Source: an uncultured Alphaproteobacteria bacterium
Lineage (GTDB): Bacteria; Pseudomonadota; Alphaproteobacteria; RF32; CAG-239
Direction: 5' to 3'
Length of the DNA: 64,000 nucleotides
Assembly: GCA_944390885.1 (NCBI GenBank)
Contig: CALXRP010000001.1
Coordinates: 110,906 to 174,905 of the forward strand
The notes under the pieces were generated by a model, which worked only from the letters and a program-made list of their open reading frames with translations, was not told the origin of the DNA and searched no databases. Shown here one piece after another: positions 1 through 64,000 of this stretch. Position 1 is the first letter of the stretch, and each line of letters begins with the position of its first letter. The position numbers and the translations under genes were made by a program.

Positions 1-1923
1 GAAAAATATTATGCAACCGGAAAAGTTCCGGGCGGTTTTATGAAACGCGAAGGAAAACCCAGCGAACGCGAGGTTTTGATTTCTCGTCTGATCGACCGTC
101 CGATCCGTCCGCTGTTTCCGGATGCTTTTAAAAACGAAGTTCAGATTATCTGCACGGTTTTGAGCTATGACCAGGAAACGGATTCTGATATTGTTGCTAT
201 GGTTGCCGCTTCGGCCGCGCTGGCTGTTTCCGGTATTCCTTTCCTCGGGCCGATCGGCGCTGCCAAAGTCGGATATAAGAACGGACAGTTTATTTTGAAT
301 CCGACGATTGAGCAAATGAAAGATACCGAGCTGGAATTGACGGTTGCCGGCACGTCGGAAGGCGTTTTGATGGTGGAATCCGAGGCTCAGGAATTGTCGG
401 AAGAGACAATGCTGAACGCCGTTATGTTCGGGTTTGACAATTTCCAGCCGGTTATCAAAATGATTAATGAACTCAAAGCAGAGGCCGGCAAAGAGGCTTG
501 GGAAACTCCTATTTTTCCGCCGGAATTTGATGCTTTGTATGAAAGAATCGAAAAAGAATTTCGCGGTAAATTTGAAGAAGCTTTCAAAGAGACTGATAAA
601 TTGAAACGCGGTACTTTGGTCGGTCAGGCTTCGGAAGAGGTTAAAGCGACGATTGATCCGGAAAACGAGCTGGAAATGCGTTATGTCGGCGATGCCATTG
701 AAAAACTGATGCACAGAGTTGTTCGTGAAAAGGTTTTGACAACCGGACACCGGATTGACGGCCGCGATACCAAGACCGTTCGTCCGATTCAGTGCGAAAT
801 TGATGTTTTGCCGAAAACGCATGGTTCTGCTTTGTTTACGCGCGGCGAAACTCAGGCTTTGGTTGTAACGACGTTGGGTACGGGCGAAGATGCTCAGATT
901 GTTGACGGTCTGATGAACGAGTATAAAGAAGACTTTATGCTGAACTATAATTTCCCGCCGTTTTCTGTTGGCGAATGCGGTCGTCTGGGCAGCCCGGGAC
1001 GTCGTGAAATCGGTCATGGCAAACTGGCTTGGCGCGCCATTCATCCGATGATGCCGAAAAACAAGGATACTTTCCCTTATACAATCCGCGTGGTTTCCGA
1101 GATTATGGAATCGAACGGTTCTTCTTCAATGGCGACGGTTTGCGGTTCAACGCTGTCTTTGATGGCGGCAGGCGTACCGATGACCAAACCGGTGGCCGGT
1201 ATTGCCATGGGGCTGATTAAAGAAGATGATGGACGTTTTTGCGTTTTGACGGATATTCTCGGTGATGAAGACCATCTCGGCGATATGGACTTTAAGGTTG
1301 CCGGTACAAAAGACGGTGTAACCGCTTTGCAGATGGATATTAAAATTACATCCATTACCAAAGAGATTATGCAAACGGCTTTGGCTCAGGCTCATGAAGG
1401 CAGAATCCATATTCTGGGTGAGATGGCAAAAGCGATTGCCGAACCGCGTCCGAATGTTTCGCCGTTAGCGCCGGGAATTATTGCCATTAAGATTCCGGTT
1501 GATAAAATCCGTGAAGTTATCGGTTCCGGCGGTAAGGTTATTCGTGAAATTGTCGAGAAGACCAATACCAAGATTGATATCAGCGATGACGGTATCGTTA
1601 AAATTGCTTCTATGAAGAAAGAAGAGGGCGATGCGGCGCTGGAATGGATTATGGGTATTGTGGCCGAGCCGGAAGAAGGTATGATTTACAAAGGCGTTGT
1701 TACCAAAATTATGGATTTTGGCGCATTTGTTCGTTTCCTCGGCACGACGGAAGGTCTTGTTCACATTTCCGAGATTAAAAACGAGCGTATAGCATCTGTT
1801 TCCGACTTTTATAAGGAAGGCGACACGATGTGGGTTAAATGCCTTGGTATGGACAATCGCGGCAAGATTAAACTTTCTGCGAAGAGGGTGGATCAGGAGA
1901 CTGGTGCCGACCTCGAAAAGTAA
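1..1923 (+). CDS. pnp: Polyribonucleotide nucleotidyltransferase (PNPase), 5' end outside window
   Basis: Phosphorolytic 3'-5' exoribonuclease and degradosome component. The reading frame is open from base 1 (first codons give EKYYATGKVPGGF), so about 70 N-terminal residues lie upstream of the window. In order one sees the end of the first RNase PH domain with its SRLIDRPIRPLFP motif, the helical linker, the second RNase PH domain (around bases 740-1440), a KH domain with its GSGG loop near 1525-1536, and an S1 domain from about 1681 (KGVVTKIMDFGAFVRF). The protein stops shortly after S1, without the long charged tail some PNPases carry. The TAA stop at 1921-1923 is fused to the left arm of the first unit of a repeat array, which therefore forms the 3' UTR. 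Identity is certain; only the start is missing. Confidence 0.97.
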   Translation, partial: EKYYATGKVPGGFMKREGKPSEREVLISRLIDRPIRPLFPDAFKNEVQIICTVLSYDQETDSDIVAMVAASAALAVSGIPFLGPIGAAKVGYKNGQFILNPTIEQMKDTELELTVAGTSEGVLMVESEAQELSEETMLNAVMFGFDNFQPVIKMINELKAEAGKEAWETPIFPPEFDALYERIEKEFRGKFEEAFKETDKLKRGTLVGQASEEVKATIDPENELEMRYVGDAIEKLMHRVVREKVLTTGHRIDGRDTKTVRPIQCEIDVLPKTHGSALFTRGETQALVVTTLGTGEDAQIVDGLMNEYKEDFMLNYNFPPFSVGECGRLGSPGRREIGHGKLAWRAIHPMMPKNKDTFPYTIRVVSEIMESNGSSSMATVCGSTLSLMAAGVPMTKPVAGIAMGLIKEDDGRFCVLTDILGDEDHLGDMDFKVAGTKDGVTALQMDIKITSITKEIMQTALAQAHEGRIHILGEMAKAIAEPRPNVSPLAPGIIAIKIPVDKIREVIGSGGKVIREIVEKTNTKIDISDDGIVKIASMKKEEGDAALEWIMGIVAEPEEGMIYKGVVTKIMDFGAFVRFLGTTEGLVHISEIKNERIASVSDFYKEGDTMWVKCLGMDNRGKIKLSAKRVDQETGADLEK

Positions 1924-2046
1924 AAACTGCGCTCTGTGGTCACCTAATACAGAAAAAAGAATTTTAGCTAAGTCATGTACCACCACGTACACTCCTGTCG
2001 CTAAAATTCTTTTTTCTTATTATTTGACTCACATATCGCAGTTTTT
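1922..2046 (+). repeat. Palindromic repeat unit A1 (array 1, after pnp)
   Basis: An imperfect palindrome of about 125 bp. Outer arms aaaaactgcg (1922-1931) and cgcagttttt (2037-2046) are exact reverse complements. A 16-bp perfect inner stem pairs aaaaaagaattttagc (1953-1968) with gctaaaattctttttt (2000-2015). The tip is GTAC-caccac-GTAC (1977-1990). The inner stem is followed by a T-rich tract, so it could end transcription in either direction. It begins inside the stop codon of pnp. Near-identical copies follow lptG and hppA. Confidence 0.9.
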
Positions 2047-2053
2047 AAGTGTT

Positions 2054-2160
2054 TTTGAAGGCCGGTCATGCTTGTTTCTTTTCTCCTCGTGTACTTTTTG
2101 TTGTACACGTTGTCGAAAAAAAACGGCACAGCACCGGCCTTTATCAAGCTTTTTAGTGCC
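2054..2160 (+). repeat. Repeat unit C1 (array 1)
   Basis: A second repeat type next to A1. Arms aaggccggt (2058-2066) and accggcctt (2133-2141) pair perfectly, and the tip pairs cgtgtac (2088-2094) with gtacacg (2103-2109) around tttttgtt. A near copy (C2) lies about 227 bp downstream. The GTAC tip resembles that of units A and D although the stems are unrelated in sequence. Confidence 0.8.
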
Positions 2161-2276
2161 TTATGGTCATCTAATACAGATTTAGCGGGTTGGAGAAATG
2201 CTCATGTACCTCTATGTACACTCCGCTTTCTCCACCCTAAAATCTTATTATTCGACTCATTCTCCGCGTTTTTATA
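2161..2276 (+). repeat. Divergent repeat unit A2 (array 1)
   Basis: It keeps the unit A frame (ggtcatctaatacag on the left, cttattattcgactcattctccgcg in parts on the right) and the tip GTAC-ctctat-GTAC. Its inner stem is different: atttag..gggt.ggagaaa (about 2180-2198) pairs with tttctccaccctaaaat (about 2227-2243). The stem sequence has been replaced while pairing is kept. Confidence 0.8.
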
Positions 2277-63667: not shown

Positions 63668-63794
63668 GGTAAAACCGCGCTCTGCGGTCACCTAATACAG
63701 AAAAAAGAATTTTAGCTAAGTCATGTATGTCTTTATACACTCCTGTCGCTAAAATTCTTTTTTCTTATTATCTGACTCACATACCGCAGTTTTA
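63668..63794 (+). repeat. Repeat unit A5 (array 4, after hppA)
   Basis: Inner stem identical to A1 (63701-63716 with 63748-63763). The tip is GTAT-gtcttt-ATAC (63725-63738), a paired change of the GTAC...GTAC tip in A1 and A3. A 77-nt stretch (63677-63753) is identical to A6. Confidence 0.9.
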
Positions 63795-63910
63795 CAGCGG
63801 CTTGAAAGGAGATTTAGTATGGAAATTTTTTAGGTTAAGTCATGTATCACTACGTACACTCCTGTCGCCTTAAAGGTTTTTTCTTATTACTAGCCTCATT
63901 CTCCGTAATT
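63794..63910 (+). repeat. Repeat unit D3 (array 4)
   Basis: Linker acagcggcttgaaagga, then a unit with aaattttttaggttaag on the left and gccttaaaggttttttc on the right, around a tip with gtat..ctacgtac. Pairing is weaker than in D2. Right end ctagcctcattctccg as in D2. Confidence 0.75.
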
Positions 63911-63911
63911 T

Positions 63912-64000
63912 TTGGTAAAAACAGCGCTCTGCGGTCACCTAATACAGAAAAAAGAATTTTAGCTAAGTCATGTATGTCTTTATACACTCCTGTCGCTAAA
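63912..64000 (+). repeat. Repeat unit A6, cut by window end (array 4)
   Basis: Starts at aaaaacagcg and is identical to A5 for 77 nt up to the last base of the window (63924-64000). The array continues beyond the window. Confidence 0.9.

What the first reader, a model, noticed from the sequence alone, without database searches (positions are those of the whole stretch)
1922..64000. Tandem palindromic repeat family anchored at stop codons of four unrelated genes
Arrays of roughly 120-bp imperfect palindromes begin 0-2 nt after the stop codons of pnp (1923), lptG (27636), leuS (35801) and hppA (63667). In pnp and leuS the stop codon is part of the left arm. All arrays have the same orientation to the gene (ggtcacctaatacag on the left), and I see no copy elsewhere in the window. 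This placement excludes random insertion. It fits either a structured 3' UTR or terminator with a function, or a mobile element that targets 3' ends of genes. I know of no repeat family with these features; Rickettsia palindromic elements are of similar size but typically lie within coding sequences.
Basis: partly seen in the sequence, partly recalled or inferred. Interest (0 to 1): 0.88.

Follow-up and report, generated by a model that had tools for sequence, protein, structure and literature searches.

The report
Swappable palindromes lodged at stop codons
In an uncultured alphaproteobacterium and its relatives, palindromic DNA units of about 125 bases mostly sit, in one orientation, right at the stop codons of full-length genes, and related species often carry different units at the same stop codon; they are likely mobile hairpins that would act in the tail of the messenger RNA.

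Summary
A covariance model of the unit finds 36 places in this 1.70-Mb genome and matches in all 22 family genomes searched. In 16 of 18 arrays with a visible flank, the array begins at the stop codon of a same-strand ORF; in relatives 60 of 87 (within 12 nt), against 84 of 4700 random positions, and no array abuts the stop of a convergent called ORF. The genes are full-length: 28 of 29 scanned representatives reach the end of their NCBIfam profile. Same-genus genomes often carry different units at one address: in 42 of 53 pairs a unit elsewhere in one of the two genomes is closer. Related units lie in frame inside hemW, as Rickettsia palindromic elements do. The tip motif recurs in 44 of 398 genomes of the phylum, where the stop anchor is uneven. 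Best reading: a non-autonomous mobile palindrome kept as a 3'-UTR hairpin. Movement and RNA function are inferred; the enzyme is unknown, with Y1 transposase and reverse transcriptase absent here.

The parts
1921..2048 (+). F1 unit 1 of the pnp array (type A); its first bases TAA are the pnp stop codon
   Evidence: window 1922-2046, 112.8 bits
2049..2152 (+). F2 palindrome (tip CTCGTGTAC..GTACACGTTGTCG); boundaries set by eye
2153..2274 (+). F1 unit (type B) of the pnp array
   Evidence: 86.8 bits
2280..2393 (+). second F2 palindrome of the pnp array; boundaries set by eye
11332..12462 (+). hemW (radical SAM heme chaperone), the gene that carries in-frame units in same-genus relatives
12129..12182 (+). 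in-frame remnant (left arm) of an F1-type unit inside hemW
27634..27740 (+). F1 unit 1 of the lptG array; TAA 27634-27636 is the lptG stop codon; its right end continues at about 27851-27866 after F3
   Evidence: 27650-27744, 70.5 bits
27741..27850 (+). F3 element lying inside the right arm of the F1 unit
27865..27983 (+). second, degenerate F1 unit of the lptG array
   Evidence: 37.1 bits
35799..35924 (+). F1 unit 1 of the leuS array (type D); TAA 35799-35801 is the leuS stop codon
   Evidence: 120.1 bits
35925..35988 (+). left half of a further F1 unit in the leuS array (by eye)
35989..36098 (+). F3 element inside that further F1 unit
63670..63794 (+). F1 unit 1 of the hppA array, 2 nt after the hppA stop TAG (63665-63667)
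   Evidence: 107.7 bits
63795..63916 (+). second, degenerate F1 unit of the hppA array
   Evidence: 48.9 bits, 63805-63903
63917..64000 (+). third F1 unit of the hppA array, cut by the end of the contig
   Evidence: 54.2 bits

Best explanation
These palindromes of about 125 bp are likely non-autonomous mobile cassettes, predicted to be inserted at the end of full-length genes, at the stop codon and in the sense direction, by an enzyme not yet identified, and they would be transcribed as a hairpin at the start of the mRNA's 3' untranslated region. Shown by sequence: one long hairpin with covarying stems and conserved unpaired spots (a TAT/CTC loop, a bulged C in TAATACAG/CTTATTA, CA/CT under an apical TGTAC..GTACA stem); sense orientation to the gene whose stop they abut; left ends mostly at the native stop codon; full-length upstream genes; shared addresses between species with different units at the same address; in-frame units in hemW. 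Inferred: that exchange works by new insertion at the stop-proximal end and/or conversion between copies; that a protein reads the conserved tip and loops; and that occupied addresses are kept because the hairpin helps, or at least does not harm, the 3' end of the mRNA. Untested: any effect on RNA stability or termination.
For: Stop anchoring: 16 of 18 arrays in the own genome and 60 of 87 in relatives within 12 nt, plus 7 at +23 where the unit's own TAA or TAG gives the stop; random positions 84 of 4700. Genes not truncated: 28 of 29 representatives with a match reach within 6 positions of the end of their best NCBIfam profile; LeuS ends within about five residues of the same place in 5 occupied and 25 empty genomes of the 30 loci read. 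Orientation: 0 of 94 arrays have the stop of a convergent called ORF within 12 nt of their right end; the nearest is 26 nt away. Mobility or exchange: unit identity lies more than 15 points below gene-end identity in 33 of 53 pairs; the leuS and lptG units of G006 are 100% identical while its leuS unit is 74% identical to ours although the gene ends are 98% identical. Filled and empty sites: leuS is filled in G000, G001, G005, G006 and G021 and empty in G002 of the same genus; hemW has in-frame units in the six genus-g1 loci read (a remnant only in G000) and in none of 20 other loci read. Structure: 24 of 31 pairs with double changes. Transcription elsewhere, weak: a 'miRNA' predicted from Thalassospira small-RNA reads contains the same tip (PMC6413936, passage).
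Against: No cognate enzyme was found: Y1 transposase occurs in 12 of 38 genomes and reverse transcriptase in 15 of 38, and both are absent from the own genome; other transposases were not searched. No target-site duplication could be fixed. Addresses are so stable among G000, G001, G005 and G006 that selection plus gene conversion, without transposition, could explain them. 18 of 87 relative arrays are not at a called stop: 3 at -13 to -60, 4 at -61 to -200, 11 further, and 2 more were flagged inside ORFs; some follow an F2 unit or another array of the same locus. Outside the family, anchoring is uneven: G404 0 of 9, G574 3 of 8, G662 2 of 8, G493 1 of 3, and in G381 and the viral set convergent stops at the right base are nearly as common (8 of 10 and 14 of 40). 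There are no RNA data for this organism.
Confidence: 0.55

Rival explanations
1. The units are fixed functional 3'-UTR elements (mRNA stabilisers, RNase III sites or terminators) that are copied between sites only by gene conversion, not by transposition.
For: The glk, lptG, leuS, hppA and fabG addresses are occupied in G000, G001, G005 and G006; targets include core genes such as rpoA, groEL, infB, secA, bamA, atpD, rplL, rplO; sense orientation; arms end in A and T runs.
Against: The leuS site is empty in 25 of 30 family genomes read, including same-genus G002, so sites are gained or lost; related units occur in frame in hemW; array units of different types stand in tandem.
Confidence: 0.3
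2. An ordinary TA-targeting MITE of the ERIC or RUP kind; stop-codon placement is a by-product of purifying selection that spares the short stretch between stop codon and terminator.
For: Most units start with TAAA and many end with TTTA; MITEs of this size with TA ends are known (PMC2229807, passages).
Against: 38 of the 60 stop-anchored arrays have the stop codon at -1 to +1, and the anchor holds where the stop is TAG or TGA outside the arm, although empty spacers before native terminators are 20-40 nt by eye and hold several TA sites; a symmetric target would not give 60 to 0 orientation.
Confidence: 0.2
3. A REP element moved by a RAYT (Y1 tyrosine) transposase.
For: Palindromic, repeated, at gene ends; GTAG REPs can supply stop codons (PMC3733652, passage).
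Against: The unit is about 125 bp, not 20-40 bp; no Y1_Tnp match in the own genome or in element-rich G001, G004-G007 and G010.
Confidence: 0.04
4. Assembly artefact: short-read contigs of metagenomes joined through repeats.
For: Contigs end inside arrays (window end; C24 start; G002 and G004 hemW contigs).
Against: The same gene-unit joins recur in separately assembled MAGs of other species.
Confidence: 0.01

Closest known systems
Rickettsia palindromic elements (RPE)
   Same: Size (105-146 bp per PMC2229807, passage), one long stem-loop, alphaproteobacterial, in-frame insertion in a conserved protein (here hemW).
   Different: Here most units sit at stop codons in sense orientation, form tandem arrays and are exchanged at fixed addresses; no RPE sequence was available to compare.
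ERIC/RU-1, YPAL, Correia/NEMIS, RUP (bacterial MITEs)
   Same: About 100-170 bp palindromes, TA at the ends of most, some transcribed with the gene upstream, sometimes fused to a gene end or supplying its stop (PMC2759123 and PMC2229807, passages).
   Different: No TSD shown here, no parent IS found, a stop-codon address with one orientation, and a conserved apical motif.
GTAG- and CGTC-tagged REPs
   Same: Palindromes mostly downstream of genes, at times giving the stop codon (PMC3733652, passages).
   Different: 20-40 bp, defined by a tag at one end (abstract) rather than a conserved tip; Y1 transposase absent here.
Palindromes with the same tip in Hyphomicrobiales and Sphingomonadales (Shinella, Phyllobacterium, Aminobacter, Sphingobium)
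   Same: Tip CTCAYGTAC..GTACRCT, long palindrome, next to an annotated stop codon in several of the six records viewed.
   Different: Different stems; in G381 they fill gaps between convergent genes, with stops on both sides. Whether these equal the published RIME elements was not tested.
Rfam sX9 (Xanthomonas sRNA)
   Same: A tip-bearing palindrome in L313 matches it at 39.8 bits, overlapping the hairpin.
   Different: Below the gathering score of 44; one locus of the 20 searched.
Integron attC sites
   Same: Imperfect hairpins with unpaired bases, lying after a stop codon (recalled).
   Different: No attC core motif seen by eye in the units; no gene cassettes; integrase not searched.

Membership tests
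Rickettsia palindromic element | 105-146 bp long stem-loop | tested here: met
   size range from PMC2229807 passage
Rickettsia palindromic element | in-frame insertion within protein-coding genes | tested here: met
   hemW only; about 41-aa units, open frame in G001, G005, G006; R1 bit scores 39-51 for these units
Rickettsia palindromic element | sequence similarity to a named RPE family | not testable with these tools
   no RPE sequences or named Rickettsia chromosomes at hand; PMC186582 not held
TA-type MITE (ERIC, RUP, Correia) | terminal inverted repeats with 5'-TA-3' ends | tested here: inconclusive
   most left ends read TAAA, but AGAAAG, CGAAAA, TGGAAA also occur
TA-type MITE (ERIC, RUP, Correia) | target-site duplication | tested here: inconclusive
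   filled and empty sites compared at leuS, hppA, hemW; flanks too diverged or already carrying older units
TA-type MITE (ERIC, RUP, Correia) | parent transposase sharing the terminal repeats | not tested
   only Y1 transposase and reverse transcriptase were searched
REP / RAYT | 20-40 bp palindrome with GTAG or CGTC tag | tested here: not met
   unit about 125 bp; size from the abstract of PMC3733652 as listed
REP / RAYT | Y1 tyrosine transposase in the genome | tested here: not met
   PF01797 absent from G000 and from 26 of 38 genomes, several of them element-rich
Known Rfam RNA family | match at gathering score | tested here: not met
   only a tRNA in the window; sub-threshold matches over the pnp array unrelated
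Integron attC | R and L core sites and an integron integrase | not tested
   core motif looked for by eye only; no integrase search
Intrinsic terminator | hairpin followed by U-tract that ends the transcript | tested here: inconclusive
   A/T runs flank the stem, but terminator-like hairpins remain downstream of the arrays in L059 and L087 by eye; no RNA ends mapped

The most novel reading that the evidence does not exclude
A mobile hairpin whose insertion is directed by where translation or the transcript ends, not by DNA sequence: it creates a set of fixed stop-codon addresses in a genome, into which interchangeable cassettes are loaded in sense orientation. An apical motif shared across the phylum implies a dedicated, still unknown enzyme or RNA-binding protein.
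Probability: 0.25. Interest if true: 0.92.

Novelty: new variant of a known kind. Interest (0 to 1): 0.74.

Why it matters
Small palindromic repeats are common in bacteria, but how they choose sites and how they move is open. Here the site is a functional landmark, the end of translation, kept across species while the unit itself is exchanged. That makes two questions testable: whether an element can target the stop codon through translation or RNA, and whether these hairpins control mRNA 3' ends of core genes. The conserved tip gives a handle to fish out the protein partner in cultivable relatives. The in-frame units in hemW also bring the Rickettsia-type 'protein-coding palindrome' into genomes recorded as uncultured gut and rumen Alphaproteobacteria (titles; their order was not named by any tool).

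Tried and rejected
Y1 transposase/RAYT as agent: no correlation with element number. Reverse transcriptase as agent: present in 15 of 38, absent from G000, G001, G002, G006, G013. Gene truncation as the cause of stop adjacency (the unit carries stops at 0, +12 and +23 and would cut most ORFs it entered): rejected by profile coverage and the LeuS comparison. Rfam identity: none. Published descriptions: full-text searches listed no paper on a stop-codon-anchored palindrome family in these bacteria; only open-licence papers were searched, and all papers cited were seen as listings or passages only. Exact insertion chemistry: comparisons of flanks gave no clean duplication.

Rows dropped or weak: 20 arrays were examined; three weak separate matches (C2:134921, C15:122, C15:36637) were not. 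In one search the 90 loci came from the best-listed hits, so high-scoring units are over-represented; of 227 matches the best 150 were used, 12 of them dropped as opposite-strand or overlapping; 7 arrays lack a flank; ORFs were called mechanically (100 aa or more). In 'closer elsewhere' means in at least one of the two genomes and among the 13 sampled sites; the two kdsB rows with G000 run through an F2 unit and are not informative, and the pnp rows compare F1 with F2. Searches covered 30 of 47 representatives; one (L262) had no match, the pgk profile is a bifunctional fusion, and several matches lie below the curated cut-off (many N-termini are cut by the locus). One search read 30 of 49 genomes; one search aligned 26 hemW loci of 46 genomes with a match; one search read 50 of 80 hppA loci. 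One search examined 24 of 29 phylum loci and 40 of 81 viral tip matches after a structure filter, with a stop window of -13 to +25. Six of 36 plasmid records were viewed.
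Full report
OBSERVATION. The stop codons of pnp, lptG and leuS are the first bases of the left arm; the hppA unit starts 2 nt after its TAG stop. A covariance model (R1) was built from 18 diverse units. On a structure of 31 pairs, 94.7% of cells pair (shuffles 69.2%; partners slid by 1-3 columns 32-53%) and 24 pairs show double changes. 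The fold is one hairpin with conserved unpaired places: TAT/CTC above the basal stem, a bulged C in TAATACAG/CTTATTA, and CA/CT under the apical stem TGTAC-n6-GTACA. R1 gives 39 matches at E up to 0.1 in the own genome, three of which are the other strand of units already listed, so 36 places. It finds matches in 25 of 38 relatives: all 22 family members, one genome of the same order, and two of 15 other genomes of the class.

STOP-CODON ANCHOR. In the own genome I examined 20 arrays; 18 have an upstream flank. In 16 the array starts at the stop of a same-strand ORF (14 directly, within -7 to +3 once the truncated lptG match is extended; pgk and kdsB through a leading F2 unit). The two exceptions are one at +23, where the unit's own stop ends the ORF, and one 299 nt away. 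In 90 loci from relatives there are 94 arrays, 87 with a flank: 60 have the stop within 12 nt, 7 at +23, 3 at -13 to -60, 4 at -61 to -200, 11 further, and 2 were flagged inside ORFs. Random positions in the same loci give 84 of 4700. No array has the stop of a convergent called ORF within 12 nt of its right end, and one of 94 arrays holds units on both strands. So placement and orientation are both tied to the upstream gene.

NOT A TRUNCATION EFFECT. The unit carries stops at 0, +12 and +23, so it would end most ORFs it entered. I therefore tested whether the genes are complete. Of 47 representative upstream proteins 30 were scanned; 29 have NCBIfam matches, and in 28 the best profile reaches within 6 positions of its end. 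The exception is pgk, matched by a bifunctional profile. Targets include rpoA, groEL, infB, secA, bamA, atpD, pheT, priA, rplL, rplO, pyk, htpG and ychF. LeuS ends within about five residues of the same place in 5 genomes with a unit and 25 without, of 30 read; same-genus G002 has a terminator-like hairpin there instead. hppA shows the same: of 50 relatives read, 14 carry a unit after the stop by eye (L052 doubtful), and L027 (unit) and L024 (no unit) share the last residues. In +12 and +23 cases the unit adds a few residues to the protein.

FIXED ADDRESSES, EXCHANGED UNITS. At 13 addresses shared by same-genus genomes, 53 species pairs were compared. In 33 the unit is more than 15 points less identical than the gene end, and in 42 a unit at another sampled address of at least one of the two genomes is closer than the unit at the same address. 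Example: leuS of G000 and G006 is 98% identical at its end while the units are 74% identical; in G006 the leuS and lptG units are 100% identical. In hppA a unit that stands second in G000, G001 and G006 is first in G005, so a new unit stands in front of it (by eye). Against a purely fixed function, leuS is empty in G002. Gene clusters recur between genera: 16 of 61.

IN-FRAME COPIES. hemW (window 11332-12462) carries one in-frame unit in G006, two in G001 and G005, and at least part of one in G002 and of two in G004, whose contigs break there. Twenty other family loci read have only a short linker, mostly about 15 residues, at this place. R1 scores these hemW units at 39-51 bits. Our genome keeps the left arm (12129-12182). 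In G004 the right arm mirrors the site's own left flank, which suggests that arms are corrected against each other (inference). In-frame insertion matches Rickettsia palindromic elements (PMC2229807, passages).

WIDER FAMILY. Very different stems in other taxa share the tip CTCAYGTAC-n-GTACRCT. It occurs in 44 of 398 genomes of the phylum (up to 47 copies), against single hits of the reversed pattern in 6 genomes. Folded loci form long palindromes; 18 of 24 have a same-strand stop at the left base (random 4.2%), 6 a convergent one at the right base. G381: 9 of 10 left and 8 of 10 right. G404: 0 of 9 left, 4 right. G574: 3 of 8 and 1. G662: 2 of 8 and 4. G493: 1 of 3 and 2. IMG/VR contigs: 19 of 40 left, 14 right (random 15.9%). 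So outside the family the anchor is uneven and the orientation rule does not hold everywhere. In named plasmids the element lies within about 11 nt of an annotated stop in Shinella HZN7, Aminobacter SR38 and Phyllobacterium zundukense but not in Sphingobium MI1205. A 'miRNA' predicted from Thalassospira small-RNA reads contains the tip (PMC6413936, passage), so a member is probably transcribed there. I treat this wider family as a lead, because shared ancestry rests on the short tip.

MECHANISM. In the family, sense-only orientation and the anchor to full-length gene ends point to a role or a targeting step that involves RNA. I favour a non-autonomous mobile hairpin that ends up in 3' UTRs and is then kept and exchanged. 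The agent is unknown: Y1 transposase and reverse transcriptase are absent from this genome. Other transposases were not searched. Selection plus gene conversion is the main rival.

NOVELTY. Searches of open full text showed partial precedents (ERIC, QMITE2, GTAG REPs) but no family with this address rule. I rate it a new variant of the palindromic-element kind.

Noticed in passing
window 27741-27850 and 35989-36098; L047 after 6305: A third repeat (F3, CTTAGGTATCTAG...GATGTTCCAAAGAGCTTGCAGA-hairpin-CTTAGCG) lies inside F1 units, in L047 inside the apical region; it looks like a separate small mobile element that uses F1 as target.
   Followed up: partly
window 2049-2152, 2280-2393; L005, L009, L156, L161, L164: A second palindrome family (F2, tip CTCGTGTAC..GTACACGTCGTCG) also starts exactly at stop codons (pgk, kdsB in the own genome; pnp in G005/G006; fabG in G006).
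   Followed up: partly
L313 1504-1581: Rfam sRNA sX9 (39.8 bits, below its cut-off of 44) overlaps a tip-bearing palindrome, so sX9 may be a member of the wider repeat class.
   Followed up: no
G404 loci L459-L467: A multi-copy tip-bearing palindrome family (TAGGCCCTGTTGACATTCACCATCTT...) outside the class shows no left-base stop anchor (0 of 9), so the address rule is not universal.
   Followed up: no
L496 (G042 leuS): The element-free leuS of G042 is followed by TAAAAACTGCG, the exact left-base sequence of several F1 units; chance or a footprint.
   Followed up: no
L106/L107 against L209/L210: Two addresses on C5 carry swapped unit types in G000 and G001, judged by their left ends.
   Followed up: partly
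window 35799-36246: The leuS array separates leuS from the downstream gene, which starts soon after leuS in many element-free relatives; the array may lie within an operon.
   Followed up: no
window 64000, L007, L193, L195: Contigs of several MAGs end inside these arrays, so copy numbers are underestimates.
   Followed up: no
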